The translations under genes were made by a program, and so were the position numbers. Below, one piece after another: positions 41 through 62,800 of a stretch of 64,000 nucleotides of DNA (position 1 is the stretch's first letter; each line of letters begins with the position of its first letter). The notes beneath the pieces were generated by a model. It searched no databases and was not told the origin of the DNA. It saw only the letters and a program-made list of their open reading frames with translations. The stretch covers positions 3,658,001 through 3,722,000 of the forward strand of contig NZ_JBEGIK010000001.1 of the NCBI RefSeq assembly GCF_040675855.1, read 5' to 3'. This DNA is from Microbacterium sp. LWH3-1.2. GTDB taxonomy: Bacteria > Actinomycetota > Actinomycetes > Actinomycetales > Microbacteriaceae.

Positions 41-1030
41 GTGGAGGCGATCGATGGCCTGGGCACCGACGTGCCTGCGACGATCGAGTGGGCGGTTCGC
101 GTCGGACGGGACGCACCGTTGCCGGGGAGTGGCCGGACAGCACAGCTGTGGGAGCTCCTCGCCGAGACCGCGAGACTCGACGTCGGCGCCGCCCGGATCC
201 TCGAACCACAGCTCGACGCACTCGCGATCCTGTGCCAGGCGCGCCGCGACGGGGTGGACGTCGATACGGCGCTGGACGAGGTGGGTGCCAGTGGTGACGC
301 ATCGTGGGGCGTCTTCGCGGCAGAGGGGCCCGGCGCGCGACTCGAGGCCTCTGCGCATGGAGCCGACGGCTGGCTGCTGAACGGGACCAAGCCGTGGTGC
401 TCGCTCGCGGCGTCGTTGAGCCACGCACTCGTGACGGCCTGGGTGTCTCCCGATGCGCGCGGTCTGTTCGCTGTGCCCCTCCGTGTCGTGGGAGTGTCCG
501 CACGATCGGGCCCGTGGGTCGCGCGAGGGCTCAGCCAGGTGATCAGCGCGCCTGTCGACTTCGACGCCGTCCGCGCGGTGCCGGTCGGCGAGCCGGGGTG
601 GTACCTGTCACGCCCCGGGTTCGCGTGGGGCGGTATCGGCGTTGCGGCGGCGTGGTGGGGTGGAGCTGTTCCCGTGCACGAGGCGCTGGTCGCCTCAGCC
701 GGTCGTGACGGCGCGGACCAACTCGCCGAGTTCTCCGCCGGGAGCACGGATGCTGCGCTCTGGGCGGCGCGGGCAGTCCTGGCCGAGGCGGCCGAGGCGA
801 TCGACACCGGCTTGGGCGACGAGGAAACCGGCACGCTCGCCGCCCGGGCGAGGGCCGTCGTCGCAGGCGCCGTCGAGCAGGTCCTCAACCTCGCCGATCA
901 TGCGCTCGGTCCCGGCCCGCTGACCACCGATGAGGATCACGCGCGGCGTGTGGCGGATCTCCGGATCTACGCGCGACAGCACCACGGCGAACGGGACCTC
1001 GCCCGCCTCGGCCGGAGGCTCCTGCCGTGA
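41..1030 (+). CDS. acyl-CoA dehydrogenase-like protein (5' end may lie outside window)
   Basis: This is an acyl-CoA-dehydrogenase-fold flavoprotein of about 329 residues, shorter than the usual 380-400. The segment LLNGTKPWCSLA (about residues 114-125) is the typical middle-domain GTKxWCS signature, and the C-terminal half is the helical bundle. The GTG at 41 is the first start in view, but the frame is open back to base 2, so the true start may lie upstream of the window. The gene overlaps the next one by 4 nt (GTGA) and so belongs to a three-gene unit with a PIG-L/methyltransferase and a glycosyltransferase. That company argues against ordinary beta-oxidation. It more likely oxidises a pathway intermediate, but the substrate is unknown and I could not place a catalytic glutamate with confidence. 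Confidence 0.82.
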   Translation: MEAIDGLGTDVPATIEWAVRVGRDAPLPGSGRTAQLWELLAETARLDVGAARILEPQLDALAILCQARRDGVDVDTALDEVGASGDASWGVFAAEGPGARLEASAHGADGWLLNGTKPWCSLAASLSHALVTAWVSPDARGLFAVPLRVVGVSARSGPWVARGLSQVISAPVDFDAVRAVPVGEPGWYLSRPGFAWGGIGVAAAWWGGAVPVHEALVASAGRDGADQLAEFSAGSTDAALWAARAVLAEAAEAIDTGLGDEETGTLAARARAVVAGAVEQVLNLADHALGPGPLTTDEDHARRVADLRIYARQHHGERDLARLGRRLLP

Positions 1031-2379
1031 GCGTCGCCTTCGATCACCGCGACCCCGGTACCTCGGAGGCCGAGTGGACGGCGGCCCGGCTGCGGTCCAG
1101 AGCGACGCCTCTGCACGACCGCGCGTCGCGCCTCATCGTGCTCGCCGCGCACCCCGACGACGAGACGCTCGGCGCGGGCGGACTCATCGCGACCGCAGCG
1201 GCGACCGGAACGGACGTATCGGTGATCGTAGCCACGGACGGTGAGGCGTCTCATCCGCGCTCCTTGGCGGCCGCGGATCTCGGCGTACGACGGCGATTCG
1301 AAGTCGTCGCGGCGCTGCGCGAACTCGCCCCCGGTGCGCGGCTCAGGTTTCTCGGCCTTCCGGACGGAGGCCTTCGCGAGTCGACGGCGGCACTGCGCGA
1401 TGCGCTGCTGGGCGAACTCGGACCGCTGCCGCACGGCGTCCTGCTGGCGGTCCCGTGGTGGGGCGATGGCCATCGCGATCATCGGGTTGCGGGCGAGACC
1501 GCCCTCACGCTCCGCGGACCGGGGGTGCACGTGATCGCGTACCCGATCTGGCTGTGGCACTGGGGCGATCCCGAGGCCGTCGACGCTCTCGTCGAGCCCG
1601 CTCGATGGCGCACGCTGCCGCTCGCGAAGGGTGTCGCCGACGCCAAGTCCGCGGCGCTGGCGCGACACGTGTCGCAGGTCGCGCCGATGTCAGATGCGCC
1701 GGGCGACGAAGCGATCCTGCACGACGACATGCGGGCGCATTTCGCTCGCCCTTACGAGCTGTTCATCGACACGGAGCCCTCGCCGGCCGCCGCGTCCGCG
1801 GACCCGGCGACGTTCGACGGCTACTTCCGCACGCACGCAGATCCCTGGGGTTTCGAGACGAGCTGGTACGAGGAGCGGAAGCGCTCCGTCCTCTTGGCCG
1901 CGCTCCCCCGTCAGCGCTTCTCACGTGTGCTCGAACTCGGCTGCGCGACCGGCGTCTTGACGATCGAACTCGCCCGGCGTGCCGATGGGGTGCTCGGCGT
2001 CGACGCCTCGCCCACTGCGCTGGCCCGTGCCCAAGATCGAGCCGACGGAACCATCGGTCTGGCTTTCGAGCACCGGAACCTGCCCGCGCAGTGGCCGAGC
2101 GGTTGCTTCGACCTCGTTGTGCTGTCCGAACTCGGCTACTACTGGTCTGCGGACGACCTGGCCGCCGCACGGGCGCGGATCGCAGCATCCCTTACTCACG
2201 ATGGTGTCCTGGTCGCGTGTCATTGGCGGCACCCGATGTCGGATGCGCCGCTCACCGCAGACGAGGTCCACGCCGCCCTCGGCGACGACCCCTCGTGGAC
2301 GAAGACGCTGCACCATCTCGAACGCGACTTCGTACTCGAGGTGTTCGAGCGGTCCGCCGGCGGAGAGCGTCCTATATGA
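1027..2379 (+). CDS. bifunctional PIG-L family deacetylase / class I SAM methyltransferase
   Basis: This 450-residue fusion has two enzymes. The N-terminal half is a zinc-dependent LmbE/PIG-L N-deacetylase, with the metal motif AHPDDE at 41-46 and the second metal-binding motif HRDH at 149-152; this is the fold of MshB, which deacetylates GlcNAc conjugates. The C-terminal half (about 255-440) is a class I methyltransferase with the SAM-binding loop ELGCATG at 303-309, resembling NodS-type N-methyltransferases. The GTG start at 1027 overlaps the previous gene's stop (GTGA), and the stop overlaps the next gene's ATG. A deacetylase fused to a methyltransferase suggests that a freed amine is then methylated, but this is inference. 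Confidence 0.92.
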   Translation: MSVAFDHRDPGTSEAEWTAARLRSRATPLHDRASRLIVLAAHPDDETLGAGGLIATAAATGTDVSVIVATDGEASHPRSLAAADLGVRRRFEVVAALRELAPGARLRFLGLPDGGLRESTAALRDALLGELGPLPHGVLLAVPWWGDGHRDHRVAGETALTLRGPGVHVIAYPIWLWHWGDPEAVDALVEPARWRTLPLAKGVADAKSAALARHVSQVAPMSDAPGDEAILHDDMRAHFARPYELFIDTEPSPAAASADPATFDGYFRTHADPWGFETSWYEERKRSVLLAALPRQRFSRVLELGCATGVLTIELARRADGVLGVDASPTALARAQDRADGTIGLAFEHRNLPAQWPSGCFDLVVLSELGYYWSADDLAAARARIAASLTHDGVLVACHWRHPMSDAPLTADEVHAALGDDPSWTKTLHHLERDFVLEVFERSAGGERPI

Positions 2380-3183: not shown

Positions 3184-4380
3184 TCACTCGTGCTCCGGCA
3201 GAAGCGGCGTCGACCAGCCGGGGTCGCGGCCGAGCTGCGTCGCGCGGGAGACGGATGCTGCGCCGAAACGATCGCGCACGGCATCGAGCACCGTGTCCAG
3301 GCGCACGCCGTCGTCCCAATCGATCGGGAGCTCTGGCGGGACACTGTCGACGCGGCCGAGCTGCGACAGCGAGACGCCGATGAGGGTGATGCCGCGTTCT
3401 GCGATCTCGGGCTGCGCGACGGCCAGCAACCCGTGCGCGACCGCGAGGATCAGCGCAGTGCGATCGGTGGGTGAGCGGAACGAGCGGGAGCGCGTGGCCT
3501 TCGCGTAGTCGCCGTACCGGAGGCGCAGCACGACGGTTCGACAGACGCGGTCGCCGTCGCGCAGGCGACGCGCGAGCCGATCGACGATCTGCGTGAGGAT
3601 GACTTCAAGCTCCTCGGGCGTGCGTGGCCGGTTCCCGAGCGCACGCTGCGAGCCGATGGACCCGCGGCGCCGCGTGGTATCGACCGGGCGCGGATCGCGC
3701 AGCCGAGCCAGCGCATGCAGGTGCGCTCCGGCCGCCCTGCCGAGCAGTCTCTCGGCTGTCGCAGCCTCGAGCTCGGCCAGCTGCCCGACGGTGTGGATGC
3801 CGAGACCGTGGAGCTTCTCAGCAGTGACGGCGCCCACCCCCCACAGCCGTTCCACCGGCAGCGGGAGCAGGAACTCCTCTTCGCGTCCGGGCTCGACCAG
3901 CAGCAGCCCGTCGGGTTTGCTGACGGCGCTGGCGACTTTGGCGAGGAACTTGGTGCGGGCGATCCCGACCGAGATGGGCAGCCCGACCTCCGCACGAACC
4001 CGCTCCCGCAGTCTCACCGCGACCTGCTCAGGCGTACCCGCGATGCGTCGCAGGCCGCCGACCTCGAGGAATGCCTCATCGATGGAGAGCCCCTCGACGA
4101 GCGGCGTCGTATCGCGGAAGATCGCGAAGACGGCTTTGCTCGCCGCGGAGTAGGCCTCCATGCGGGGCGGCACGATCACGGCATCGGGGCACAGGTCGCG
4201 CGCCTGACGGCCTCCCATCGCGGTGCGCACTCCTCGAGCCTTCGCCTCGTAGCTCGCCGCCAGCACCACGCCGCCGCCGACGACGACGGGCCGGCCACGC
4301 AACGCGGGCGCGTCGCGCTGCTCGACCGACGCATAGAAGGCGTCGAGATCCGCATGGAGCACGGTCGCCTCGTCGCGCAT
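3184..4380 (-). CDS. dinB: DNA polymerase IV (Y-family translesion polymerase)
   Basis: This error-prone Y-family polymerase copies damaged templates. The catalytic carboxylates are visible as ADLDAFYASVEQ (Asp11) and SIDEAF (Asp101-Glu102). A helix-hairpin-helix segment and the little-finger domain with the common GVSLSQL motif follow; the length of 398 residues is normal. The frame is open upstream, but the ATG at 4380 is preceded by a strong ribosome site (GGGAGGTGGT) and starts exactly where family members start. A near-perfect actinobacterial LexA box lies 13-26 nt upstream, so SOS induction is likely. It is convergent with the preceding glycosyltransferase. Confidence 0.96.
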   Translation of the reverse strand: MRDEATVLHADLDAFYASVEQRDAPALRGRPVVVGGGVVLAASYEAKARGVRTAMGGRQARDLCPDAVIVPPRMEAYSAASKAVFAIFRDTTPLVEGLSIDEAFLEVGGLRRIAGTPEQVAVRLRERVRAEVGLPISVGIARTKFLAKVASAVSKPDGLLLVEPGREEEFLLPLPVERLWGVGAVTAEKLHGLGIHTVGQLAELEAATAERLLGRAAGAHLHALARLRDPRPVDTTRRRGSIGSQRALGNRPRTPEELEVILTQIVDRLARRLRDGDRVCRTVVLRLRYGDYAKATRSRSFRSPTDRTALILAVAHGLLAVAQPEIAERGITLIGVSLSQLGRVDSVPPELPIDWDDGVRLDTVLDAVRDRFGAASVSRATQLGRDPGWSTPLLPEHE

Positions 4381-7488: not shown

Positions 7489-7544
7489 CCCGGACGCGCC
7501 CAGGAGAAGCGACCGGGGACGGATGCGCGAGGCGATCGCACTGC

Positions 7545-9981: not shown

Positions 9982-11376
9982 TCAGACCGGCCGCGCCGCC
10001 GCGAAGAGGTTGGCCGGGTCGTACGCGAGCTTCAGCTGACGCAACCGGGCCCACGCCGACCCGAACGCCACCGAGCGATCGGCACCGGGCGCGTCGACGA
10101 ACGTCAGCGCGAGCGCGTCGACGCGCCACTTCATCATGGCCGCGACCCCCGCACGCACCGCGGCCGTCGCGGCCGGTGCGGCGTCGGGCGTCATCACCAT
10201 CGCGATCGAGTGCACGAGGTACTCGCCGTCCAGCGACGCGATCGCACCGCCGCCCTCCGGGCGCCGGTTCACGGCCCCGCCGAGGTGACGCAGCTCCTGC
10301 ACGAAGATCCCGGGCGTCTGCGCCGCCTCGACGAAGGCGTCCACGGCGCGTGCCGGCAGCTCCCCCAGCACCGCGTGCCACGTCGCCGACGGCGACGGCT
10401 CGGGCGGGTCCATGTGCACGCCGACGAGCGCGGGCGCGGGAATCCGGGCGAACGTGTCGACCTCGGGCTCGAGCGCACGCAGCGGCTCGAGCAGAGCGGC
10501 TGCCGCGGCATCCGTGTCTTCGATCGCGCCATCGATCACGACCACCGAGCGGCCCGACAGGAACGGCGGCAGTTCGGGCATCGGCGGGATGTGGAGGATG
10601 CGCAGCGTCGTGGTGGCCGTCTCAGGGGCGGACCGCGTCCATCGCGCCCATGCGTGCGAGATCTCGGAGGCGCGCGACGCATCCCACAGCAGCATGCCGG
10701 CGAAGACCTCGGCGAGCGGGAGCAGGTCGATCTCGATCGCGACGACGACGCCGAACGAGCCCGACCCGCCTCGCAGCGCCCAGAAGAGCTCGGGGTTCTC
10801 GTCGGCCGTCGCGCGCACGAGCACGCCCTCGGCCGTCACGACCTCGACAGCGCGCACCGCGTTGACGGCCAGACCGTGCGCTCGGGCGTAGAACGAGAGC
10901 CCGCCGCTGAGCGAATACCCGACGACCGACACGTCGCCGGCGCTGCCGTGCAGGGCGGTGAGACCGTGCGGCGCCGCCGCTTCGAGCACGTCGTTCCAGA
11001 GCGAGCCGCCGAGCACGCGCGCCGTCCGCGCCTCGGCGTCGACCGTCACGCCCCGCAGTTCCCGCAGCGACACCAGCACGGTGTGCGCGAGGTCGGTGTC
11101 GCTGAGCGCGCCCGCACCGTGACCGGTCGACTGCGGCGCGATGCGCAGGCCCGAGAGCGTGGCGGCACGAACGACTTCGACCACGTCGTCCGCGGACTCC
11201 GGGATCACGACGGCGAACGGATGCTGCGCCACGGCGAGGTTCCACGGGGTCCTGGCGGCGTCGTATCCGGCGTCGCCACGCAGCAGCGCGCGGTCGCCCA
11301 GCGCCGAGCGCAGCTCGGCCGCCGCGGCGGCCGCGGCCGCGTGGGGCACGTCGATGGCGAGGTCGTTGAGGGACAT
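9982..11376 (-). CDS. FAD-binding oxidoreductase (PCMH/berberine-bridge type)
   Basis: This flavoprotein oxidase/dehydrogenase of 464 residues has the PCMH FAD-binding domain at about 45-215 (PFAVVIPESADDVVEVVRAA, then GHGAGALSD and GYSLSGGLSFYARAHGL). A C-terminal berberine-bridge segment ends in YDPANLF, the family's usual KYDPxNxF motif. The usual bicovalent Cys is not obvious, and GHGAGA replaces the GGGHS-type loop. I chose the ATG at 11376, after AAAGGCAG, rather than an upstream GTG; the extra 23 residues upstream are Arg/Ser-rich and atypical. The substrate is unknown. Confidence 0.9.
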   Translation of the reverse strand: MSLNDLAIDVPHAAAAAAAAELRSALGDRALLRGDAGYDAARTPWNLAVAQHPFAVVIPESADDVVEVVRAATLSGLRIAPQSTGHGAGALSDTDLAHTVLVSLRELRGVTVDAEARTARVLGGSLWNDVLEAAAPHGLTALHGSAGDVSVVGYSLSGGLSFYARAHGLAVNAVRAVEVVTAEGVLVRATADENPELFWALRGGSGSFGVVVAIEIDLLPLAEVFAGMLLWDASRASEISHAWARWTRSAPETATTTLRILHIPPMPELPPFLSGRSVVVIDGAIEDTDAAAAALLEPLRALEPEVDTFARIPAPALVGVHMDPPEPSPSATWHAVLGELPARAVDAFVEAAQTPGIFVQELRHLGGAVNRRPEGGGAIASLDGEYLVHSIAMVMTPDAAPAATAAVRAGVAAMMKWRVDALALTFVDAPGADRSVAFGSAWARLRQLKLAYDPANLFAAARPV

Positions 11377-11510: not shown

Positions 11511-12002
11511 TCAGCTCTCGAAGTCCTCCGGTTCGACGTCGTCGAGGAATCGCTTGAACTCGTCGAGCCGCTCTGCGGCATCCGTCTCGGTGAGCACGTC
11601 GGGAACACCCGCCTCGGCGAGGACCGCGTCGGCGACCCAGATCGGCGCGCCCACCCGCGACGCGAGCGCGACGGCATCGGACGGACGGGCATCGACGACG
11701 CGCTCGCCGAGCGCCGTGGACAGCGTGATCTCTGCGTAGAACGTGCCGTCCTCGATGCGCGTCACCTCCACCTTCGTCGCCGCCGCGTCCAGCGCGGTGA
11801 GGATAAGCCCCATGAGATCGTGCGCGAGCGGCCGCGGCACCTCGGCGTTCTCGACGGCGACCAGGATCGACGTGGCCTCGAGCTGGCCGATCCAGATCGG
11901 GAGCACGAGCCCGTCGCCGGGGATCTGATCGACGGGCTTCAGCAGCAGCACGTGCTGCCCCGACGCGTCAAGAGCCACACCGGCCACGCGGACCTGGACC
12001 AT
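11511..12002 (-). CDS. bifunctional nuclease family protein (DUF151)
   Basis: This small soluble protein of 163 residues has the DUF151 (BFN) domain, recognised by LVLPIWIGQLEATSIL, RPLAHDLM, the FYAEITL strand and the ARPSDAVALA motif; an acidic C-terminal tail follows (DDVEPEDFES). Plant BFN members have DNase and RNase activity, and bacterial members are uncharacterised housekeeping proteins, often near translation or MerR genes. The ATG at 12002 has a weak GAGGGGG ribosome site. Confidence 0.9.
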   Translation of the reverse strand: MVQVRVAGVALDASGQHVLLLKPVDQIPGDGLVLPIWIGQLEATSILVAVENAEVPRPLAHDLMGLILTALDAAATKVEVTRIEDGTFYAEITLSTALGERVVDARPSDAVALASRVGAPIWVADAVLAEAGVPDVLTETDAAERLDEFKRFLDDVEPEDFES

Positions 12003-12166
12003 TGCGCACCCCCTCGGCTCGCGGCATCCGTCGGCGCCGTCTTCTCTCGGGCCATCGTAGGCACCGCGCACGCACCCAGGACAGGGGGTTGCGCGCGCCT
12101 CGCGTTCGCCGCACGACTGTTTTCATTCACCGGAATGGATGCCCCGCGCGTACGGTTGCAGACGAC

Positions 12167-20489: not shown

Positions 20490-20523
20490 GAGGACGGATG
20501 CTGCGGCCGCAGCATCCGTCCTC
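20490..20523. terminator. bidirectional palindromic terminator made of two ACGGATGCTGCGG words
   Basis: This is a perfect 34-bp palindrome with 17-bp arms (GAGGACGGATGCTGCGG and its mirror), placed between the convergent ends of the SDR and the PPOX-class gene. Each arm contains the recurrent word ACGGATGCTGCGG found throughout the window. Confidence 0.85.
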
Positions 20524-38757: not shown

Positions 38758-38824
38758 GAACAAGGGCTGGGGCCTGAGCGTTCGCTGAGCAGTCCGCGGG
38801 ACGGCGGCCGAAGCATCCGTCCCC

Positions 38825-44122: not shown

Positions 44123-44172
44123 CAGCGCAGTGACGGATGCTGCGGCCATCGTCGCGACGTACGCTGGGCGTC

Positions 44173-49041: not shown

Positions 49042-49968
49042 TCAGTGCACCGGCGCGGCCACCCGCACCCGATCCGGGCGGGAGTAGACGTTCATCGACG
49101 AGCCGCGCACGAACCCGACGAGGGTGAGCCCGGACGCCGCGGCCAGCTCGACGGCCAGCGACGACGGCGCAGAGACCGCGGACAGGATCGGGATGCCGGC
49201 CATCACCGCTTTCTGGACGAGCTCGAAGCTCGCACGCCCCGAGACCTGCAGCACGGTTCCGCCGAGCGGCAGCAGGTCTTCGAGCACGGCCCAGCCGATC
49301 ACCTTGTCGACCGCGTTGTGCCGGCCGACGTCCTCGCGCAGCACGAGGAGTTCGCCGGACGCGGCGTCGAACAGCGCCGCGGCGTGGAGGCCGCCGGTCT
49401 TGTCGAACACCGTCTGCCCCGCCCGCAGCTCGTCGGGAAGACGCGTGAGAAGTGCGGCGTCCACGGCGGCGGCATCCGTGCCGACGTCGTAGCGGGACCG
49501 CTTCTCGATCGCCTCGATCGACGCCGTACCGCAGACGCCGCACGAGCTCGTGGTGTAGAAGTTGCGGGCGATGTCGGTCACGAGCGGCGCGAGCTCGGGA
49601 GCGAGCGCGATGTCGAGCACGTTGTAGGTGTTCTCCGTCGACGCCGCCGGCGCCACGACCGCCGGCATGGGGCCGACGCCGATCGTCAGCAGCGGCGTCG
49701 GCGGTACCGAGCCCGTGCCCGGTCCGCCGCAGTGGATCGCGGAGCGGAGATCGGCCGCCGCGGACATCACACCTTCCGACACCAGGAAGCCCGCCGCGAG
49801 CTCGATGTCGTTCCCGGGGGTGCGCATCGTCACGGTCAGCGGCTCCCCCGCGACCCGCATCTCGAGCGGTTCCTCGACCACGAGGGTGTCGGCGCGGCGA
49901 CGGACGACGGCATCACCGTCGTTCAGCACGATGCGGGTGACGGGGGTGCGGGTGGTGATGCGGCCCAT
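49042..49968 (-). CDS. fdhD: formate dehydrogenase accessory sulfurtransferase
   Basis: FdhD, of 308 residues, transfers sulfur to the molybdenum/tungsten cofactor of formate dehydrogenase. The conserved Cys pair is in [17 protein letters not shown] (about 140-156). [37 protein letters not shown] and [13 protein letters not shown] are also typical. ATG 49968 is 1 nt from the end of moaA on the same strand, so the pair is an operon. No formate dehydrogenase structural gene is in the window. Confidence 0.95.
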
Positions 49969-53805: not shown

Positions 53806-53834
53806 GACGGATGCTGCGGGCCGCAGCATCCGTC
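53806..53834. terminator. terminator of cydAB made of inverted ACGGATGCTGCGG words
   Basis: 14-bp perfect arms, GACGGATGCTGCGG (53806-53819) and the mirror (53821-53834), are separated by one base. It is shared with the convergent truncated esterase. Both arms carry the recurrent word. Confidence 0.85.
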
Positions 53835-54200: not shown

Positions 54201-55898
54201 ATGAGTGAGACGGATGCCCCGCCTCGCGTGAACGGCAAACCCGTCGACCCACGGCTGCTGCGGTACGCGAGCGCCTCTCGCGGTTTCTTCGTCGCGATCG
54301 CCGCCATCGCGGCGGCGCAGACCGCGGTGATCGTCGCGTTCGCGTGGCTGCTGACGCGGGCGATCACCGGAGCGATCGACGGGATGCCGTGGGCCGACCT
54401 CGCGCCCACTCTCGGCGCGCTCGCGCTCGTGGTCGCGCTGCGTGCGGTGCTGCTGTGGACGCGCGAAGCCGTCGCCGCCCGCGCGGCCGCGCGCGTGCAG
54501 GGTCAGCTGCGCGCGACGCTCGTCGAGGCCATCGGCGTGCTCGGGCCCGAATGGCTCGGCGCCCGCAACTCGGCCGCGCTCGCCGTGACCGCGGGACGCG
54601 GGCTCGACGCCCTCGAGGCGTACTTCGGCCGCTACCTGCCGCAGCTCGTGCAGACCGTGGTGGCGACGCCGCTGATCCTCGCGGTGATGTGGTGGCAGGA
54701 CTGGATCTCGGGGCTCACCGTGCTGCTCACGCTCCCCCTCATCCCGATCTTCATGGTGCTCATCGGCCTCGCGACCCAGTCGGTGCAGCAGCGGCAGTGG
54801 CGCACGCTGCAGCGCTTGGCGTCGCGATTCGCCGACACTGTGCAGGGACTGTCGACCCTCAAGGTGTTCGGCCGGCAGCACCGGGCCGCGGCATCCATCG
54901 AACGGGTCACCGGCGAGTACCGCCGCGAGACGATGCGCGTCCTGCGAGTGTCGTTCCTTTCGGGGTTCGCGCTCGAGTTCCTCGCCTCGATCGCCGTCGC
55001 GATCGTGGCGGTCTCGATCGGGTTCCGGCTGATCGACGGGACGCTGACACTGGCCGTCGGGCTCTTCGTGCTGCTGCTGGCACCAGAGGCATACCTGCCG
55101 CTGCGCCAGGTCGGCGTCCAGTTCCACGCCGCGGCCGAGGGGGTCGCGGCGACCGACGACGTGTTCGACGTGCTCGACGCCGCGCGGACCAGCCCGCGGG
55201 CGGAGGAACCGGTCGTCGAGCGAGCGAGGAGCGAGCAAGGCGGAACGCCTGCACCCGGCGCACACGCCGTGCTCGTCCTCGATCGCGTCCGCGTGCGCCG
55301 CGGAGAACGGATGCTGCCAGCCGTCGATCTGACGGCGGGCCCGGGCACGGTCACCCTCGTCGAGGGGCCGAGCGGGGCCGGCAAATCCAGCCTCATCGCC
55401 GCTCTGCGGGGAGCAGCCGCCTTCGGCGGGGAGGCATCGTGGGACGGCGCCGACCTGCGCGCCCTCGCACCGTCGGAGTGGCTCGCGTGGGCGGGCCAGC
55501 GCCCCGGGCTCCTCACCGGCAGCATCGCCGACAACGTCGCCCTCGGCGATCCGACACCCGATCCGGCGACGGTGCGGCGCGCGCTCGAGCTCGCCTGCGC
55601 CGATGGGCTCGACCCTGCGCAGGAGCTCGGCGTGCAGGGCGCCGGCCTCTCCGGCGGCCAGGCTCAGCGCGTCGCGGTCGCCCGCGCGTTCTACCGGCAC
55701 CTGTGCGGGGACGCCGCGGTGATCGCGCTCGACGAACCCAGCTCGGCGCTCGACCCCCGGACAGAGGGCCGGCTATGGCGCAACATCCGTCTCCTCGCCG
55801 ACGAGGGCGCGACGGTGCTGCTGATCTCGCACCGTACGTCGGCGCGCGCCATCGCCGACCAGGTCGTGCGCCTCGAGCCGAGCGAGGTGCTCGCATGA
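54201..55898 (+). CDS. cydD: ABC transporter CydD subunit, cytochrome bd assembly
   Basis: This is half of the heterodimeric CydDC exporter of heme/cysteine/glutathione-type thiols needed to assemble cytochrome bd. It has 565 residues: six helices (about 27-310) and then an ATPase domain with Walker [13 protein letters not shown], signature LSGGQAQRV and Walker B AVIALDEPSSALDP. ATG 54201 follows GAGGTGG. It overlaps cydC by ATGA. The Q-loop and H-loop (ISHRTS) are present. Confidence 0.94.
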   Translation: MSETDAPPRVNGKPVDPRLLRYASASRGFFVAIAAIAAAQTAVIVAFAWLLTRAITGAIDGMPWADLAPTLGALALVVALRAVLLWTREAVAARAAARVQGQLRATLVEAIGVLGPEWLGARNSAALAVTAGRGLDALEAYFGRYLPQLVQTVVATPLILAVMWWQDWISGLTVLLTLPLIPIFMVLIGLATQSVQQRQWRTLQRLASRFADTVQGLSTLKVFGRQHRAAASIERVTGEYRRETMRVLRVSFLSGFALEFLASIAVAIVAVSIGFRLIDGTLTLAVGLFVLLLAPEAYLPLRQVGVQFHAAAEGVAATDDVFDVLDAARTSPRAEEPVVERARSEQGGTPAPGAHAVLVLDRVRVRRGERMLPAVDLTAGPGTVTLVEGPSGAGKSSLIAALRGAAAFGGEASWDGADLRALAPSEWLAWAGQRPGLLTGSIADNVALGDPTPDPATVRRALELACADGLDPAQELGVQGAGLSGGQAQRVAVARAFYRHLCGDAAVIALDEPSSALDPRTEGRLWRNIRLLADEGATVLLISHRTSARAIADQVVRLEPSEVLA

Positions 55899-57643
55899 CC
55901 GCCCCGAGCCAGCCCGAACACCCCCGCTCACCTGTCGCAAACGGCCGCCCGGAGCAGCACGTCCTGACAGGCGAGCAACCCTCCACGTTGGGAGCGGTGC
56001 TGCGCGGCGCGATGCCGCCGGCGCGGCGGTTCTGGTGGGCGCTCGCGGCCGGGTTCGCCTCGGAAGCCTCGGCTGTCGCGCTGCTCGCCGTCAGCGCGTG
56101 GCTCATCGTGCGCGCGAGCGAGCAGCCGCCGGTGCTGTACCTGTCGGCCGCGGTCGTCGGCGTGCGATTCTTCGCCATCTCGCGCGCTTCGTTCCGCTAC
56201 CTCGAGCGGCTCACCGGCCACGACGCCGCCTTGCGGCAGCTCGCATCGACGCGCGCCGACCTCGTGCGCCGGCTCGTCCCCCTGGCCCCCGACGGCCTGG
56301 CGCGCACGCGCCGGGGCTCAGTGCTGGGGGCGCTCGTCGACGACGTCGACGAACTGCAGAATCTTCCGCTGCGTGTCGTGCAGCCGCTGGTCTCGTCGGC
56401 ACTGGTCGCCCTCGGCGCGGTCGTGCTGCTCGCGGTCGTGTGGTGGCCGGCTGCCCTGACCCTGCTCGCGTGCCTCATCGTCGCGGCGGCGATCGCCACG
56501 CTGTGGGGATGGATGTCGGGCGCCCGGGCAGAACGGGCCATCGCCCCGCTGCGCGCCCGCCTCGCCGACGCGGTGCTCGACCACATCGGCAGCCTCGACG
56601 TGCTGACCGCGTTCGGCGCGGAGGCGCAGAGCCGGGAGCGCATCGCCGGCGCCGACGCCGACCTGCGGCGCGCCGTCGTCCGCCGGTCCGGAGCGCAGGC
56701 CGGCACCGCCGCCCTCGTGTCGCTCCTCGCCGGCGCCGCGTCGATCGCCGCCGTGCTGGTCTCCGCGCCGGGCGCGGCATCCGGCTCGCTCAGCGGTCCG
56801 TCCCTCGCGGTCGCCGTGCTTGTGCCGATGGCGGTGTTCGAGGTGTTCGCGTCGGTGCCGATGGCCGCGTCGGCGTGGCGCCTGGTGCGGGCGTCGGCGG
56901 AGCGCATCGCGGATTCGCTGCCCGCCACCGCGCCCGCTGAACTCGCCCCCGAGACCGTCGAGGCCACGGGTGACGCTCCCGCTCTCGGCGGCGGCATCCG
57001 GTTGCAGGGGGCGAGCGTACGGTGGCCGGGCGCCGCCGAGCCCGCGCTGCGCGACATCGACCTCGCGATCCGGCCGGGCGAACGGGTGCTCGTCATGGGC
57101 TCGAGCGGCGCGGGCAAGAGCACCCTCGCGCACGCGCTCGTGCGGTTCCTCGAGACCGAGGGAGGCTACGACGTCGGCCCCCGCTCGGTGCACGACCTCT
57201 CCCCCGACGACGTGCGGCTCACGGTGGGCTTGTGCGAGCAGCATCCGATGCTCTTCGACGAGGACATCCGCCAGAACCTGCTCTTCGCGCGCGACACCGC
57301 GACGGATGCCGAGCTCGAGGCCGCCCTCGACCGCGTCGGCCTCGGCGCGTGGCTGGGCGAGCGCGGCGGACTCGGCGCGCGCGTCGGCGAGCGCGGCGCC
57401 CTGGTGTCGGGCGGACAGGCGCAGCGGATCGCGCTCGCGCGGGCGCTGCTGCGGGGCTTCCCGGTGCTCGTGCTCGACGAGCCCACCGCGGGCGTCGACC
57501 CCGAGGCATCCGATCGCCTCCTCGCCGACCTGCTGGGCGCCGTCCGCGACGACCAGGCCGTGGTGCTCATCTCGCACGTCGCCGTGCCCGACAGGCTCGT
57601 CGACCGCATCGTGCGCATCGAAGACGGCCGCCTGGCCCGATGA
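55895..57643 (+). CDS. cydC: ABC transporter CydC subunit, cytochrome bd assembly
   Basis: This second half of CydDC has 582 residues. A Pro-rich soluble start (1-30) precedes six helices, with the CydC-typical RASFRYLERLTGHDAALRQL. The ATPase domain has Walker [15 protein letters not shown], signature VSGGQAQRIALARALLRG and Walker B VLVLDEPTAGVDP. ATG 55895 overlaps the cydD stop. The open frame continues far upstream only as cydD's shifted frame. Confidence 0.94.
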   Translation: MTAPSQPEHPRSPVANGRPEQHVLTGEQPSTLGAVLRGAMPPARRFWWALAAGFASEASAVALLAVSAWLIVRASEQPPVLYLSAAVVGVRFFAISRASFRYLERLTGHDAALRQLASTRADLVRRLVPLAPDGLARTRRGSVLGALVDDVDELQNLPLRVVQPLVSSALVALGAVVLLAVVWWPAALTLLACLIVAAAIATLWGWMSGARAERAIAPLRARLADAVLDHIGSLDVLTAFGAEAQSRERIAGADADLRRAVVRRSGAQAGTAALVSLLAGAASIAAVLVSAPGAASGSLSGPSLAVAVLVPMAVFEVFASVPMAASAWRLVRASAERIADSLPATAPAELAPETVEATGDAPALGGGIRLQGASVRWPGAAEPALRDIDLAIRPGERVLVMGSSGAGKSTLAHALVRFLETEGGYDVGPRSVHDLSPDDVRLTVGLCEQHPMLFDEDIRQNLLFARDTATDAELEAALDRVGLGAWLGERGGLGARVGERGALVSGGQAQRIALARALLRGFPVLVLDEPTAGVDPEASDRLLADLLGAVRDDQAVVLISHVAVPDRLVDRIVRIEDGRLAR

Positions 57644-57729: not shown

Positions 57730-59283
57730 TCACGCCGGCGCGGGCTCCGCCACGACGGCCTCGGCGGCCGCGGTGATGCGGCGCGCCATCCCCGCGAAGA
57801 TGAATCCGTGGAACGGCACCACCGCGACCCAGTACAGGCGCCCCGCGAGCCCTCGTGGGAAGAACACGGCGCGCTGATCGTAGCGTGAGCCGCCGCCATC
57901 GCCGTCGGGCGAGGCCTGCAGCTCGAGCCACGCGAGACCCGGCACCTTCATCTCGGCCCGGAGGCGCAGCATCCGTCCCGGTTCGAGAGCTTCGACGCGC
58001 CAGAAGTCGAGGGCGTCGCCGACGGCGAGCCGTTCTTTGCTGCGCCGCCCGCGGGCCAGCCCGATGCCGCCGACGAGGCGGTCCATCCAGCCGCGCACAG
58101 CCCACAGCAGAGGCGACGAGTACCAGCCGTTCTCACCGCCGATCCCCACGATCACACCCCACAGCGCCGATGGCGAGGCGGGGGTGTGGGTCGTGCGCAC
58201 GTCGGTGAAGACGACACGACCTGCCCAGTCGGGATCGTTGGGCAGCGGGTCGCTCGGCGCGCCGAGCACCTCGGCATCCTGCCAGCTCGTCTCGATCGCG
58301 TCTGCCTCGACGCGACCGAGCGCCATTCGTACCGCCGTCCGGTAGGGCGTCAAGCCTCCGTCGGGCGGCGGGATCAGGTCGTCGATCGCGAGGTCCTTGA
58401 CGATGCACTCGTTCTGCAGCGACTCGACGAGCGGGCGGGCGATGGAGCGGGGAATCGGCGTGACGAGGTTCACCCAGTGAGAGGCGAGCCGCGGCGTGAG
58501 CACCGGCAGCGCCGCGATGGGTCGCTGCCTCAGGCCTGCTTCGACGGCGTAGCCATTCATCATCTGCCCGTACCGCAGCACATCGGGTCCGCCGATGTCG
58601 ACAGCCCGGTTCACGTCGGCGGGCAGCCGCGCGGCACCCAGCAGGTAGTGCAGCACGTCGCGCACGGCGATCGGCTGGATGCGGTTGCGCACCCACTTCG
58701 GCGCCGGCATGTAAGGCAGCACCTCGGTGAGGTGACGCACCATCTCGAACGACGCGGACCCGGATCCGATCACGACGCCCGCCTGCAGCACGATGGTGGG
58801 CACCCCGCTCGCGAGGAACGTCTCGCCGACCTCGACGCGCGAGCGCAGATGCGGCGACAGCGCCACCCCCTCGGGGTGCAGGCCCCCGAGGTACACGATC
58901 CGACCGACGGATGCCTCCACCGCCGCCCGCGCGACCGTCTGGGCCGCGCGACGGTCGGCGTCGGCGAACGACGTGCCGCCCGACATCGAGTGGACGAGGT
59001 AGTAGACGACGTCGACATCACGCGCCGCTTCGCCGACGGATGCGGCATCCGTGGCGTCGCCGCGGACGATCTCGACGCTGTCGCTCCAGGGGAACGCGAC
59101 CGCCCGGGCCGCGTCGCGTGCCAGGACGCGCACTTCGTACCCGGCGTTCAGGAGCCGGGGAACCAGGCGACCGCCGATGTAGCCCGTTGCCCCGAGGACC
59201 AGTGCCCGGCGCGCGGAGCCGTCGTCGCGCGGCCGGGCGATGAGCGCCGGCTCACGGCCGGTCGGCGCAGAGACATCGTCCAC
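57730..59283 (-). CDS. SDR-family epimerase-like protein with DUF2867 C-terminal domain
   Basis: This 517-residue two-part protein has an N-terminal Rossmann domain of the atypical SDR type (LVLGATGYIGGRLVPRLL at about 28-45, then VVYYLVHSMSGG and GRIVYLGGLHP). The C-terminal half is the DUF2867 ligand-binding domain, with RTTHTPASPSALWGVIVGIGGENGWY and the closing WVAVVPFHGFIFAGMARRI. The family is common in actinobacteria and uncharacterised; lipid or quinone substrates have been suggested by its fold only. The start is GTG 59283. An ACGGATGC inverted pair lies inside the gene at 59036-59052. Confidence 0.88.
   Translation of the reverse strand: MDDVSAPTGREPALIARPRDDGSARRALVLGATGYIGGRLVPRLLNAGYEVRVLARDAARAVAFPWSDSVEIVRGDATDAASVGEAARDVDVVYYLVHSMSGGTSFADADRRAAQTVARAAVEASVGRIVYLGGLHPEGVALSPHLRSRVEVGETFLASGVPTIVLQAGVVIGSGSASFEMVRHLTEVLPYMPAPKWVRNRIQPIAVRDVLHYLLGAARLPADVNRAVDIGGPDVLRYGQMMNGYAVEAGLRQRPIAALPVLTPRLASHWVNLVTPIPRSIARPLVESLQNECIVKDLAIDDLIPPPDGGLTPYRTAVRMALGRVEADAIETSWQDAEVLGAPSDPLPNDPDWAGRVVFTDVRTTHTPASPSALWGVIVGIGGENGWYSSPLLWAVRGWMDRLVGGIGLARGRRSKERLAVGDALDFWRVEALEPGRMLRLRAEMKVPGLAWLELQASPDGDGGGSRYDQRAVFFPRGLAGRLYWVAVVPFHGFIFAGMARRITAAAEAVVAEPAPA
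59036..59052. repeat. inverted ACGGATGC pair inside a coding sequence
   Basis: ACGGATGC-G-GCATCCGT is a 17-bp palindrome within the SDR gene. It shows that two copies of the recurrent word can be tolerated back-to-back in coding DNA. Confidence 0.7.
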
Positions 59284-60084: not shown

Positions 60085-61173
60085 TCACGGCACGTCGACG
60101 AAGCGCACGTCGGCCGGGTCCACGCGCAGCGTGATCGGGTCCCCGGGCCCGAGGCCCGCCGCGCGATCGGCGGCCACGTCCACGGCGACGTCGGGGTCGG
60201 CGGTGCGCACGCGCACGCCCGCGGGGGTCTGCTCGAGCCGCACGATGCGCGCGATCCACTCCCCCGCACCGCGGGGCGGCCCCTCGGCGACCCGGACGTC
60301 GCTCGGGCGGAACACGGCCGCGGAAGACGGATGCCGCGTCCCCGCCGGGCGGGGCAGCACGAGGTTCCCGGCACGCCAGGCGGCAGCATCCGTCCTCCCT
60401 TCCACCCGGTTGAGACCCGCAACCGCCGCGGCGAAGCGGGTCGCCGGAGAGGCGAGCACTTCACGGACAGGGCCGGACTGCGTGACGCGGCCGCCCTCGA
60501 GCACCACCAAGCGGCTCGCGAGGGCGACGGCGTCGACCGCGTCGTGGGTCGCGACGACCGCGGTCGTGCCGGTGGCCGCGAGCTGCTGATGCAGGAGCGC
60601 GCGCACGTCGCCGGCGGTCTCGGTGTCGAGGGACGTGAGCGGCTCGTCGAGGAGGAGGGCGGCGGGCGCCGTCGCGAGGGCACGCGCGAGCGCCACGCGC
60701 TGCTGCTGGCCGCCCGACAGCTGTGCGGGACGACGCCCGCCGAGACCTTCGAGGCCGACGCGCCGAAGCCAGTCACCGGCGCCGTCCGCGGCGGCGGCCT
60801 TCGTCGCCCCGTGGACGCGGAGCCCGAACGCGACGTTGTCGATCGCGCTGAGATGTGGGAACAGCCGCGGGTCCTGCCCGAGCAGCACCACGCCGCGCGA
60901 CGCGGGCGGCGTGCGGCGCGCCGGAGACGCGTCGATCGCGCGACCCCCGAGGTGCACATGTCCTTCGTCGAACCCGGTGAGCCCCGCGAGCACCCCGAGC
61001 AGCGTCGACTTGCCGGCCCCGCTCGGCCCCATCAGAGCGACGACGGCTCCCGACGCCGCCTGGAGTGCGACGTCGAGAGCGAACCCGCCGCGACGCACCA
61101 CCACCCGGGCGTCCAATCCGGCCGCCGCGTGGGACGCGGCGTTCGTCCCGGCGTGCGGCGCGACCGCGCTCAC
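60085..61173 (-). CDS. modC: molybdate ABC transporter ATPase
   Basis: This ATPase of 362 residues has Walker [17 protein letters not shown]-loop [14 protein letters not shown], signature [15 protein letters not shown] and Walker [15 protein letters not shown]. The C-terminal ~110 residues contain a TOBE/mop-type domain ([20 protein letters not shown] and on to [10 protein letters not shown]) that binds oxyanion, as usual for ModC. GTG 61173 overlaps the modB stop (GTGA). It is the last gene of the mod operon. Confidence 0.94.
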
Positions 61174-61997
61174 CGCGGAGCCTCTGCCCGCCAGGCGCGC
61201 ACGAGGAGCAGCACCCCGACGGCGGTCACGAGGAGCAGCAGCGACAGTGCCACCGCCGTTCCCTGCGACACACCGGCGCCGTTGAACGCGGTGTAGATCG
61301 CGAGCGGCATGGTCTGCGTCACGCCCGGAGCGTTGCCCGCGAACAGCGCGGTCGCCCCGAACTCCCCGATCGCCCGGGCGAAGCACAGCACGATGCCGGC
61401 GACCAGTCCCGGGGCGGCGAGCGGGAGCGTCACGCGGGCGAGGATCGTCCAGCGCCCCGCACCCAAGCCCGCCGCCGCCTGCTCATACCCCCATCCGGTC
61501 GACCGCAGCGCTCCCTCGAGCGCGAGCACGAGGAACGGCAGCGCGACGAAGGTCTGCGCCATCACGACTGCGGTCGTCGTGAACGGGATGCGGATGCCCC
61601 ACTCCGCGAGAATGCCGCCGAGCCAGCTGGTGCGGCCGAAGAGGAACAGCATGGCGACGCCGCCGACCATGGGCGGCAGCACCAGCGGCACCGTCACGAG
61701 GGCCCGGAGAACGGCGGCCGTGCGGACGGTGCTCCGCGCGATGAGAAGCGCCAGCGGCACCCCGAGCACGACGCACACGACGGTCGCCACCGCGCCGGTC
61801 GCGAGCGAGAGCCCGAGGGCCGACAGCGCCACGGACGACGTGACATCGCTCCACAGCGTCGCCCATTCGACCCGCAGCACGAGGGCGCCGAGCGGCAGCA
61901 CCAGCAGGGCGAGCCCGATCACCGCCGGCACGGCGAGCACGCGCGGCACGAACCCCGCGCGCTCCTCGCGCGCGGGTGCGTGTGCCGCAGCGAGCAT
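61170..61997 (-). CDS. modB: molybdate ABC transporter permease
   Basis: This permease of 275 residues has six helices and the ModB marks [51 protein letters not shown] (the ATPase-docking EAA loop) and [21 protein letters not shown] 61997 overlaps the TAA stop of modA by one base. It sits between modA and modC. Confidence 0.94.
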
Positions 61998-62800
61998 TAT
62001 GGCGCCCCGAAGCCGAGGTCGGTGAGCACGTGCCGGCCTTCGCCGCCGAGCACGAACGCGACGAACGCGCCGGCGACGCCGGGGCTCGCGGCGGCGGAGA
62101 GCGCCACGATCGGGTAGCGGTTGACGACGTCCTCGGCACCCCCTATCTCGATCGCGTCGACGGCGTCCGTGGTCTTCGCATCCGTCACGTACACGAGTCC
62201 CGCGTCCGCCTCGCCGGCCGCCACCTTCGTGAGCACCGCGGTGACGTTCTGCTCGTAGCTGTCGACGCTCGCCGTCACGCCGGCGTTCGACAGCAGCGTC
62301 GCCGACGCCGCGCCGCACGGCACCTCGGCGGCGCACAGCACGACGGTCAGGTCGGCGGTGGCGAGGTCGTCGAGACTCTCGACGTCCCCCGGGTTGCCGG
62401 CGGGCACCACCAGCACGAGCGTGTTGCCGGCGAACACCTGAGGGTCGGCGGCGAGCCCTTCGTCCACGACCTTCTGCATGTTCTTCTCGTCGGCCGATGC
62501 GAACACGTCGACCGGGGCGCCCTCGATGATCTGCGTCGCGAGGGTCGACGAGCCGTCGTAGGTGATCGGCTGCACATCGACGGACGGATGCCGCGCCTCG
62601 AACTCCGTCGCCAGCTCATCGAAGGCCGCCTTCAGCGACGCCGCCGCGTAGACCGTGAGGTCGCCGGTGAGCTCGGGCTCTGCCGGCGTCGATGCCGACG
62701 TCGCGAGCGGATCCTGGTCGGTGCCGGTCGCGCAGCCGGTGAGCAGCAGCGCCAGGGCGGCCAGCACGACGGAGGCGCGCAGGAGCGCGGAGCGCGCCAT
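61997..62800 (-). CDS. modA: molybdate-binding lipoprotein
   Basis: This exported binding protein of 267 residues has a signal peptide with lipobox LLTGC (Cys23). LTVYAAASLKAAFDELATEFEARHP, YDGSSTLATQIIEGAPVDVFASADEKNM and VLVVPAGNPGDV are ModA signatures; the SSTLATQI and ASADEKN segments line the oxyanion site. ATG 62800 follows the regulator stop by one base, so the two are transcribed together. Confidence 0.95.
   Translation of the reverse strand: MARSALLRASVVLAALALLLTGCATGTDQDPLATSASTPAEPELTGDLTVYAAASLKAAFDELATEFEARHPSVDVQPITYDGSSTLATQIIEGAPVDVFASADEKNMQKVVDEGLAADPQVFAGNTLVLVVPAGNPGDVESLDDLATADLTVVLCAAEVPCGAASATLLSNAGVTASVDSYEQNVTAVLTKVAAGEADAGLVYVTDAKTTDAVDAIEIGGAEDVVNRYPIVALSAAASPGVAGAFVAFVLGGEGRHVLTDLGFGAP

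What the first reader, a model, noticed from the sequence alone, without database searches (positions are those of the whole stretch)
746..62593. Genome-wide ACGGATGC word behaving like an uptake-type sequence
By eye I count about 40 exact ACGGATGC/GCATCCGT words, often extended to ACGGATGCTGCGG or ACGGATGCCG. Examples start at 746, 3251, 11217, 24427, 25464, 30837, 32349, 33672, 44133, 53807, 54210, 55307, 57302, 58907, 59036, 60327 and 62582. Simple base composition at 70% GC predicts roughly two. Inside genes the word often reads ACG GAT GCT/GCC (Thr-Asp-Ala), using GAT and GCT in a genome that prefers GAC and GCC, so DNA is being selected, not protein. Three convergent-gene terminators (20490, 33672, 53806) are inverted pairs of it. 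This combination (abundant in genes, inverted pairs as terminators) is the hallmark of Neisseria and Pasteurellaceae DNA uptake sequences, which I do not know to be described in actinobacteria. A Chi-like, segregation or methylation signal are alternatives.
Basis: partly seen in the sequence, partly recalled or inferred. Interest (0 to 1): 0.78.

Follow-up and report, generated by a model that had tools for sequence, protein, structure and literature searches.

The report
Dialect-switching DNA word in Microbacteriaceae
An actinobacterium and its relatives carry a short DNA word at more than a thousand places, and related species carry different versions of it, as expected for a tag that lets cells recognise and take up DNA of their own kind, though uptake itself has not been tested.

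Summary
ACGGATGC occurs 45 times in the window (shuffle expectation 4.35) and 1749 times in the genome (reversed word 45), equally on both strands. It is enriched in its genus (by inference Microbacterium) and many other Microbacteriaceae, only weakly outside the family. The new result is that the word has dialects. In 15 of 247 congeners it is rare and CGGATCCG occurs 1171-3091 times instead; in 2 of 247 CGGAACCA occurs 2517 and 2917 times; two sampled genomes use CGGATGGC. Eight of nine sampled congeners are enriched in exactly one of the four words, the ninth in none. These four share CGGA. CGGATCCG sits in two separate clades. The words exceed synonymous-codon shuffles 2.7- to 22.5-fold, show no replichore polarity, and three methyltransferase families do not follow dialect. 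ComEC was found in all 52 genomes searched. Best explanation: a DNA uptake sequence system, of which I found no description in Actinobacteria. Uptake was not tested and no receptor was found; a HIP1-like, methylation-linked word is the main rival.

The parts
746..753 (+). ACGGATGC, in gene 41-1030
3251..3258 (+). ACGGATGC, in gene 3184-4380
7519..7526 (+). ACGGATGC, intergenic (convergent genes)
10508..10515 (-). ACGGATGC, in gene 9982-11376
11217..11224 (+). ACGGATGC, in gene 9982-11376
11578..11585 (-). ACGGATGC, in gene 11511-12002
12024..12031 (-). ACGGATGC, intergenic
20494..20519 (.). inverted pair of the word (20494 +, 20512 -) between convergent genes; fold -32.0 kcal/mol over 20488-20530
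21136..21143 (+). ACGGATGC, in gene 20941-21591
21872..21879 (+). ACGGATGC, in gene 21603-22262
22337..22344 (-). ACGGATGC, intergenic
24426..24433 (+). ACGGATGC, in gene 24000-24977
25464..25490 (.). inverted pair (25464 +, 25483 -) between two - genes; fold -19.7 over 25458-25496
25957..25964 (-). ACGGATGC, in gene 25730-26689
26245..26252 (-). ACGGATGC, in gene 25730-26689
27446..27453 (-). ACGGATGC, in gene 26758-28725
27912..27919 (-). ACGGATGC, in gene 26758-28725
28025..28032 (+). ACGGATGC, in gene 26758-28725
30333..30340 (+). ACGGATGC, in gene 29014-30675
30697..30704 (+). ACGGATGC, intergenic
30841..30848 (-). ACGGATGC, intergenic
32349..32356 (+). ACGGATGC, in gene 30903-32405
33672..33707 (.). 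inverted pair (33672 +, 33700 -) between convergent genes; fold -38.5 over 33666-33714
36003..36010 (+). ACGGATGC, in gene 35498-36166
36949..36956 (+). ACGGATGC, in gene 36313-38013
38813..38820 (-). ACGGATGC, intergenic
44133..44140 (+). ACGGATGC, intergenic
45617..45624 (+). ACGGATGC, in gene 44884-45627
49472..49479 (-). ACGGATGC, in gene 49042-49968
53807..53833 (.). inverted pair (53807 +, 53826 -) between two + genes (not convergent); fold -31.0 over 53800-53840
54210..54217 (+). ACGGATGC, in gene 54201-55898
55307..55314 (+). ACGGATGC, in gene 54201-55898
57302..57309 (+). ACGGATGC, in gene 55997-57643
57969..57976 (-). ACGGATGC, in gene 57730-59283
58907..58914 (+). ACGGATGC, in gene 57730-59283
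59036..59052 (.). inverted pair of the word (59036 +, 59045 -) inside gene 57730-59283
60327..60334 (+). ACGGATGC, in gene 60085-61173
60386..60393 (-). ACGGATGC, in gene 60085-61173
62178..62185 (-). ACGGATGC, in gene 61997-62800
62584..62591 (+). ACGGATGC, in gene 61997-62800

Best explanation
ACGGATGC (extended ACGGATGCYGCG) is the local dialect of a DNA uptake sequence system of the family Microbacteriaceae. Free DNA carrying the word is preferred during natural transformation, by a still unidentified receptor on or near a Tad/Flp-type pilus, and enters through ComEA/ComEC. Recombination of the imported strands favours alleles that carry the word, so copies accumulate at permissive positions in core genes and between genes. 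When receptor specificity changes in a lineage, the genome is rewritten to a new word that keeps the core CGGA, giving dialects. Shown here: excess, strand balance, independence of protein and codon usage, mutually exclusive dialects, one dialect in two separate clades, comEC and Tad/Flp genes in the genomes examined for them. Inferred: preferential uptake, the pilus as reader, drive by transformation, change of receptor.
For: 1749 copies genome-wide against 45 of the reversed word, 879 forward and 870 reverse. Enriched widely in the family sample of 349 genomes from 85 genera (up to 1194/1212 against 29/27 in G348), while none of 230 genomes of 19 other families of the order exceeds 244 copies. 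Dialects: B CGGATCCG, 1171-3091 sites in 15 of 247 congeners, each with at most 233 copies of A; C CGGAACCA in 2 of 247, 1460/1457 and 1268/1249; D CGGATGGC in two sampled genomes (55/11.2 and 41/9.9); eight of nine sampled congeners enriched in one word each. B lies in two separate clades of the LplA tree. At one variable spot of topA, five of six A genomes carry GCATCCGT, three of five B genomes CGGATCCG and the one C genome aligned TGGTTCCG, 7 bases apart. Counts are 2.7 to 22.5 times synonymous-codon shuffles in 15 scored tests. Density is 2.5 times higher between genes, with inverted pairs. No replichore switch. ComEC in 42 of 42 and 16 of 16 genomes, 52 different ones; comEA-comEC operon in this genome; T2SSF in 30 of 30 genomes and a Flp gene in 20 of 21 loci read; [quoted passage not shown] ACGGATGC is at background in 35-40 kb of three of three Microbacterium phages.
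Against: No experiment shows uptake or transformation preference. No receptor is identified: Flp of one B clade is A-like, and ComEA, TadE-like and Rv3654c-like proteins have no residue shared by both B clades and absent from A. ComEC and T2SSF genes are also present in genomes without an evident word (G291, G314, G305), so machinery alone does not predict the word. One B genome (G228, 2313 words) has a single T2SSF match, and in another (G043) transposase-like genes lie where relatives have Flp. Two dialects are palindromic, which suits HIP-type words. Dialect B shows no intergenic excess. Some excess exists outside the family (for example 227 against 30 in G747, 65 against 7 in G732). Phage Hortus1 has 6 CGGATCCG in 40 kb against 1.5 expected. 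Word density is also low in the genes of highest GC3, not only in the lowest.
Confidence: 0.62

Rival explanations
1. A HIP-like iterated word (as HIP1 GCGATCGC in cyanobacteria), created and kept by DNA methylation and linked repair: each dialect would be the target of its own methyltransferase and have no role in DNA uptake.
For: Elhai 2015 (PMC4390886; abstract and passages read) reports HIP1 replaced in some lineages by alternate palindromes, each with a matching methyltransferase; dialect B and the g15 word GATCCGGATC are palindromes. An N6/N4 methyltransferase family (PF01555) is found in 28 of 29 congeners.
Against: Dialects A, C, D and the words of g35 and g5 are not palindromes. Methyltransferase families do not follow dialect: PF02086 in 3 of 29, PF00145 in 11 of 29 (3 A, 6 B, 1 C, 1 D). 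In the PF01555 enzyme aligned from 20 genomes no amino acid is unique to B and the central region is nearly the same in A, B, C and D; relatives at 66-71% identity occur in Arthrobacter, Kocuria, Rothia and Sinomonas, while other families of the order show at most a weak excess of ACGGATGC. Type I, IIG and III enzymes were not searched, and the targets of these enzymes are unknown.
Confidence: 0.17
2. A Chi-like word that regulates recombination or repair of broken DNA (AdnAB/RecBCD type), with specificity drifting between lineages.
For: Chi words are abundant, in core genes, and differ between bacteria (recalled). Low-GC stretches have 2 words in 60 kb against 209 in 404 kb.
Against: No strand or replichore preference: 100 forward and 111 reverse in 464 kb, 879/870 genome-wide. 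Palindromic dialects cannot be directional. Chi does not predict inverted pairs at 19 bases.
Confidence: 0.1
3. A chromosome segregation or nucleoid-organisation signal (KOPS/FRS-, SMC- or NAP-type).
For: Genome-wide spread and presence in much of the family.
Against: No polarity towards a terminus. Replacement of the whole set by another word in related clades and counts at or below control in some genera do not suit an essential housekeeping site.
Confidence: 0.05
4. Ordinary sequence features: terminators, codon usage or a protein repeat.
For: Four intergenic inverted pairs in the window fold into stable hairpins.
Against: 159 of 211 sampled copies are inside genes; only 13 of 191 neighbour distances are within 60 bases. 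All six frames are used and synonymous shuffling predicts 20.0 where 159 are seen.
Confidence: 0.02

Closest known systems
DNA uptake sequences (DUS) of Neisseriaceae and their dialects (Frye 2013, PMC3630211; passages read)
   Same: Short word with about a thousand or more copies; several dialects in one family that share a short core (CTG there, CGGA here); dialects largely follow phylogeny. Both strands, genic and inverted intergenic copies are recalled for Neisseria and shown here for dialect A.
   Different: Monoderm actinobacteria with Tad/Flp genes instead of a type IVa pilus with ComP; some dialects palindromic; function and receptor not shown.
Uptake signal sequences (USS) of Pasteurellaceae (recalled; PMC12616744 seen only in search listings with the start of its abstract)
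   Same: Abundance, strand balance and inverted pairs as candidate terminators (USS features recalled).
   Different: Different sequence, phylum and envelope; only a weak flanking signal was seen here.
HIP1 and alternate HIPs of cyanobacteria (Elhai 2015, PMC4390886; passages read)
   Same: Iterated short words replaced by alternates in some lineages; dialect B is a palindromic 8-mer containing GATC.
   Different: Most dialects here are not palindromes and the three methyltransferase families tested do not follow dialect.
Flp/Tad-dependent transformation of Micrococcus luteus (Angelov 2015, PMC4322843; abstract and passages read)
   Same: Same kind of genes: comEA, comEC, tadA, T2SSF, Flp (DUF4244) and TadE-like.
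   Different: The term 'uptake signal' does not occur in PMC4322843 nor 'uptake sequence' or 'uptake signal' in PMC8467076; no such word is described in the passages read.

Membership tests
DNA uptake sequence (DUS/USS) | Short word in strong excess over a compositional model, genome-wide | tested here: met
   45 against 4.35; 1749 against 45 for the reversed word; 211 against 31.6 by order-2 Markov in 464 kb
DNA uptake sequence (DUS/USS) | Selected as DNA, not as protein or codon usage | tested here: met
   159 against 20.0 in 30 synonymous shuffles; the reversed word gives 5 against 5.2
DNA uptake sequence (DUS/USS) | Both orientations equally, no replichore polarity | tested here: met
   879/870; 100/111 over 21 stretches
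DNA uptake sequence (DUS/USS) | Intergenic excess and inverted pairs near gene ends | tested here: met
   Dialect A: 0.96 against 0.38 per kb; 11 of 13 close neighbours in +- orientation. Not met for palindromic dialect B (1 of 72 and 5 of 76 intergenic)
DNA uptake sequence (DUS/USS) | Depleted in foreign DNA | tested here: inconclusive
   2 in 60 kb of three low-GC stretches, foreign only by inference, against 209 in 404 kb; ACGGATGC at background in 3 of 3 Microbacterium phages, whose hosts' dialects I do not know, and one of them has excess CGGATCCG
DNA uptake sequence (DUS/USS) | Competence machinery present | tested here: met
   ComEC 42 of 42 and 16 of 16 genomes, some matches partial; T2SSF 30 of 30; Flp gene in 20 of 21 loci read; comEA-comEC operon in G000. 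dprA not searched
DNA uptake sequence (DUS/USS) | Preferential uptake or transformation of DNA with the word | not testable with these tools
   needs an experiment
DNA uptake sequence (DUS/USS) | A sequence-specific receptor | tested here: inconclusive
   no surface protein tested follows dialect; Flp does not. TadA has two residues and TadB one that are found in all B and in no A, C or D genome compared
HIP (highly iterated palindrome) | Word is a palindrome | tested here: not met
   ACGGATGC, CGGAACCA and CGGATGGC are not palindromes; CGGATCCG is
HIP (highly iterated palindrome) | A methyltransferase specific to each variant accompanies it | tested here: inconclusive
   PF02086 3 of 29, PF00145 11 of 29, PF01555 28 of 29 with no B-unique amino acid; target specificities unknown; type I, IIG and III enzymes not searched
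Chi / KOPS | Orientation bias along the replichore | tested here: not met

The most novel reading that the evidence does not exclude
A whole family of monoderm Actinobacteria uses DNA uptake sequences, with at least four dialects in one genus (one of them a perfect palindrome that sits in two separate clades), read by a component of a Tad/Flp competence pilus. This would be a self-recognition system for transformation that evolved independently of those in Proteobacteria and splits a genus into mating groups.
Probability: 0.55. Interest if true: 0.92.

Novelty: new variant of a known kind. Interest (0 to 1): 0.83.

Why it matters
Uptake sequences are known to me only from two families of Gram-negative bacteria (recalled). 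A family-wide set of dialects in high-GC Gram-positives would mean that sequence-based self-recognition in transformation evolved again, with a different pilus. It would predict that Microbacteriaceae are commonly transformable in nature, suggest putting the right word on DNA when engineering these genera, and provide a natural experiment, since A, B, C and D genomes of one genus differ in their word and the receptor can be looked for by comparison.

Tried and rejected
Chi/KOPS polarity: tested by strand counts in 21 stretches, none found. Terminator or codon explanations: rejected. Methyltransferases: PF02086, PF01555 and PF00145 in 29 genomes; the PF01555 enzyme was aligned from 20 genomes; none follows dialect.

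Receptor search: ComEA, ComEC, TadA, TadB, Flp, TadE-like, Rv3654c-like and the methyltransferase, with LplA and Acs as controls, screened for residues fixed in B1 and B2 but different from A. Counts: TadA 5, ComEC 4, TadB 2, methyltransferase 2, the others 0; controls LplA 5, Acs 2. So totals do not exceed the LplA control. Two of the TadA residues (columns 149 and 232) and one of TadB (column 110) are in all B and in no A, C or D genome compared, which holds for no control residue listed; they are few, mostly conservative, and these proteins are not expected at the surface, so I do not call them receptors. Not counted there: genomes without a tblastn hit (for example B2 n=2 for ComEC), and G212, G240 and G201, whose B clade I did not determine. 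An earlier regular-expression extraction found ComEA in only 3 of 29 loci because the pattern was too strict.

Tree: 18 of 20 genomes for LplA; the two C genomes dropped out because the motif used to extract LplA was not found. The tree counts changes of the label, so B may be two gains or a gain with losses. The methyltransferase tree (20 genomes) also needs two changes for B, but its starred branches force only one. Gene calls are from my own codon-score caller, not a standard program; it calls too few genes in lower-GC genomes (none in G297). The topA comparison searched each genome only for its own dialect's word, so sharing within a dialect is partly built in; G043 and G117 are not in that alignment and the two D genomes have no D word at that spot.

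Low-order Markov scans list rare AT-rich words with meaningless z; these were ignored. In 80-kb samples of G291, G314, G305 and G089 no word stands out comparably (best z 7-10).

Full report
OBSERVATION. ACGGATGC occurs 45 times in the 64-kb window; 100 dinucleotide shuffles give 4.35 on average and 13 at most. The whole genome (G000, 3.94 Mb in 2 contigs; the window is C1:3658001-3722000) has 879 forward and 870 reverse copies, while the word read backwards has 27 and 18. In a 464-kb sample (window plus 20 stretches of 20 kb) there are 211, against 28.3 by an order-3 model. Single-base variants are near or below expectation except GCGGATGC (118/65), CCGGATGC (62/45) and ACGGATTC (19/7). Flanks carry weak extra information: G before, Y-G-C-G after, and C at bases 14 and 15.

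SELECTION ON DNA. Of 211 sampled copies 159 are in genes, 48 between genes and 4 at edges; density is 0.384 per kb in genes and 0.962 between them. All six reading frames are used. Shuffling synonymous codons over the gene set keeps proteins and codon usage and gives 20.0 (sd 5.0, 30 shuffles) where 159 are seen; the reversed word gives 5 against 5.2. Eleven of 13 neighbours closer than 60 bases have the inverted +- orientation, five of them exactly 19 bases apart; overall spacing is otherwise irregular (mean 1805, median 1234, cv 1.10). In the window four intergenic inverted pairs fold stably, none is followed by a T run in the 12 bases shown, and the pair at 53807 is not between convergent genes.

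NO POLARITY, FEWER IN ODD DNA. Across 21 stretches the strands have 100 and 111 copies with no switch along the chromosome. The three stretches of lowest GC (0.65-0.67) hold 2 copies in 60 kb; the rest hold 209 in 404 kb (the split was made after seeing the counts). By gene GC3 quartile the density is 0.21, 0.67, 0.45 and 0.21 per kb, so it is low in the most GC3-rich genes as well, which I cannot explain.

RELATIVES. The 247 genomes of the genus sample (G000 included) have from 34 copies (G103) to 1933 (G129); the reversed control is usually 10-30 per strand. In the family sample (349 genomes, 85 genera) counts reach 1194/1212 (G348), while several genera are at or below control (for example g11, g14, g60, g52). 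Of 248 genomes of the order sample, 230 belong to 19 other families: none exceeds 244 copies and by eye most are within a few times control, but some show a real excess, for example 227 against 30 (G747), 129 against 19 (G744) and 65 against 7 (G732). That g1 is Microbacterium and the family Microbacteriaceae is inferred from the closest named relatives of a methyltransferase alignment headed by the G000 protein (Microbacterium sp. Root180, 86% identity).

DIALECTS. In 80-kb samples other words stand out: CGGATCCG in G228 (72/12.6) and G217 (76/10.1); CGGAACCA in G117 (64/5.9) and G154 (72/4.9); CGGATGGCC in G032 (35/2.5) and G245 (22/2.3); and in other genera, one genome each, CGGATCCT (g5, 41/5.2), CGGATCCCT (g35, 15/1.7), GCGGATCGC (g52, 12/0.6) and GATCCGGATC (g15). 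The samples of g26, g54 and g58 use ACGGATGC. g36 (GGAGGCGCG, 49/5.6) and g17 (GTGGGCGTG, 20/1.5) have words without the CGGA core and may be something else. G089, G291, G314 and G305 show none. Genome-wide counts confirm the main dialects: CGGATCCG has 1171-3091 sites in 15 of 247 genomes and 42-566 in the other 232, and each of the 15 has at most 233 copies of ACGGATGC; CGGAACCA has 2917 and 2517 copies in G117 and G154 and at most 201 in the other 245. D was not counted genome-wide. Against an order-2 model each of eight sampled congeners is clearly enriched in one of the four words only, and G089 in none. The excess over synonymous shuffles is 2.7 to 22.5-fold in the 15 tests that could be scored, G000 (8.0) and the doubtful g36 word (2.8) included; G297 could not be scored.

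EVOLUTION. In a tree of a neighbouring gene (LplA-like, 18 genomes, midpoint root) the A genomes form one well supported group, three B genomes (G114, G110, G064) stand next to them and six other B genomes group with D; starred branches force at least two changes for B, which may be two gains or a gain and losses. In topA, five of six A genomes carry GCATCCGT at a variable spot where three of five aligned B genomes carry CGGATCCG and the one aligned C genome TGGTTCCG, 7 bases away; the two D genomes have no D word there. Of 16 sites shared by two or more genomes in topA, acs and pbp, this is the only one that mixes dialects.

NAMED EXAMPLES. In stretches of about 20 kb around the methyltransferase gene, M. 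gubbeenense (L226) and M. azadirachtae (L232) have 20 CGGATCCG each and 1 and 0 ACGGATGC; M. ulmi, M. arabinogalactanolyticum and M. oleivorans have 7-8 ACGGATGC, Leifsonia flava 17, Gryllotalpicola ginsengisoli 14, Cryobacterium sp. PH29-G1 10; M. gallinarum has 1, and the Curtobacterium, Frigoribacterium, Rathayibacter and Plantibacter loci have 0-2 (80 loci in all).

MACHINERY. ComEC (PF03772) is found in 42 of 42 genomes chosen from high- and low-count ones and 16 of 16 in a second set, 6 of them in both, so 52 different genomes; the matches in G103, G245 and G342 are partial. G000 has leuS-like, comEA, comEC and a DNA polymerase delta-like gene in a row (names other than comEC are by my reading of the sequence). 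T2SSF (PF00482) has matches in 30 of 30 genomes. In G000 one such locus, next to topA, encodes T2SSE (TadA), T2SSF, DUF4244 (Flp) and a TadE-like protein just under the Pfam cut-off; of 21 corresponding g1 loci read, a Flp gene was found in 20, not in G043. The Flp sequence resembles the M. luteus Flp quoted in PMC6370729 (passages read). A second, paired T2SSF locus and a double-domain PilC-like one are patchy. In M. luteus two tad clusters contribute to the competence pilus (PMC4322843); homologues of comEA/comEC and tad/flp are reported in the Microbacteriaceae Rhodoluna lacicola and Aurantimicrobium photophilum (PMC8591293, passages read). Presence does not discriminate: genomes without a word have these genes too.

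RECEPTOR. Seven competence or pilus proteins, the methyltransferase and two controls were screened for residues fixed in both B clades and different from A. Totals do not exceed the LplA control. Flp of clade B2 agrees with A at all 7 positions where B1 differs. TadA has two residues and TadB one found in all B and in no A, C or D genome compared; no control residue listed does this. The receptor remains unknown.

METHYLATION RIVAL. Elhai 2015 (PMC4390886) links HIP1 and alternate palindromes to matching methyltransferases. Here PF02086 is in 3 of 29 genomes, PF00145 in 11 of 29 across dialects, PF01555 in 28 of 29. The PF01555 enzyme has no amino acid unique to B and a nearly constant central region, and close relatives exist in Micrococcaceae. 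This weakens but does not exclude the rival.

PHAGES. In 35-40 kb of three Microbacterium phages ACGGATGC occurs 1, 2 and 3 times against 1.8, 1.5 and 1.7 expected. Hortus1 has 6 CGGATCCG against 1.5, unexplained. The dialects of their host strains were not determined.

LITERATURE. Ten full-text searches of the open-licence PubMed Central library listed no paper that by title or abstract start describes an uptake sequence or a dialect word in Actinobacteria; some lists were capped (20 of 500, 15 of 31, 10 of 13, 15 of 871). Passages of six papers were read. Subscription papers and preprints are not held.

VERDICT. A set of mutually exclusive dialects with a common core, spread over much of a family, placed in and between genes without polarity and independent of protein, is best explained as a DNA uptake sequence system. 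Most computable tests agree; the receptor screen, the intergenic pattern of dialect B and the presence of the machinery in word-free genomes do not add support. Membership needs the uptake experiment.

Noticed in passing
L163-L182; G000 C1:362610-363347: An apparently orphan N6/N4 DNA methyltransferase beside an LplA-like gene (seen beside it in 18 of 20 loci) is found in Microbacterium genomes of all four dialects, with relatives in other Micrococcales; its target and role are unknown.
   Followed up: partly
L063-L066 (genus g36): GGAGGCGCG is strongly over-represented (49 against 5.6 in 80 kb) but lacks the CGGA core; excess of GGAGGCGC over synonymous shuffles is only 2.8-fold.
   Followed up: partly
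L095-L098 (genus g17): GTGGGCGTG/TGGGCGTGG is over-represented (20 against 1.5 and 15 against 0.9 in 80 kb); nature unknown.
   Followed up: no
L146 (G043), about 6370-7535: Transposase-like genes lie beside the T2SSF gene where relatives have Flp and TadE-like genes, and no Flp was found; this B-dialect genome keeps 1695 words, so its pilus locus may have been interrupted recently.
   Followed up: no
L162 (phage Hortus1): Six CGGATCCG in 40 kb against 1.5 expected, while its ACGGATGC count is at background.
   Followed up: no
L211 (JASDDH010000003.1): Record titled Planococcus sp. APC 4015 has 71% GC and a Microbacterium-like methyltransferase (75% identity); probably mislabelled or contaminated. 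L252, titled a Microthrixaceae MAG, looks similar (74%).
   Followed up: no
G000 sample: Word density is low in genes of the highest GC3 quartile as well as the lowest.
   Followed up: no
L202-L205 and L135-L151: TadA columns 149 and 232 and TadB column 110 carry residues found in all B-dialect genomes and in none of the A, C or D genomes compared.
   Followed up: no
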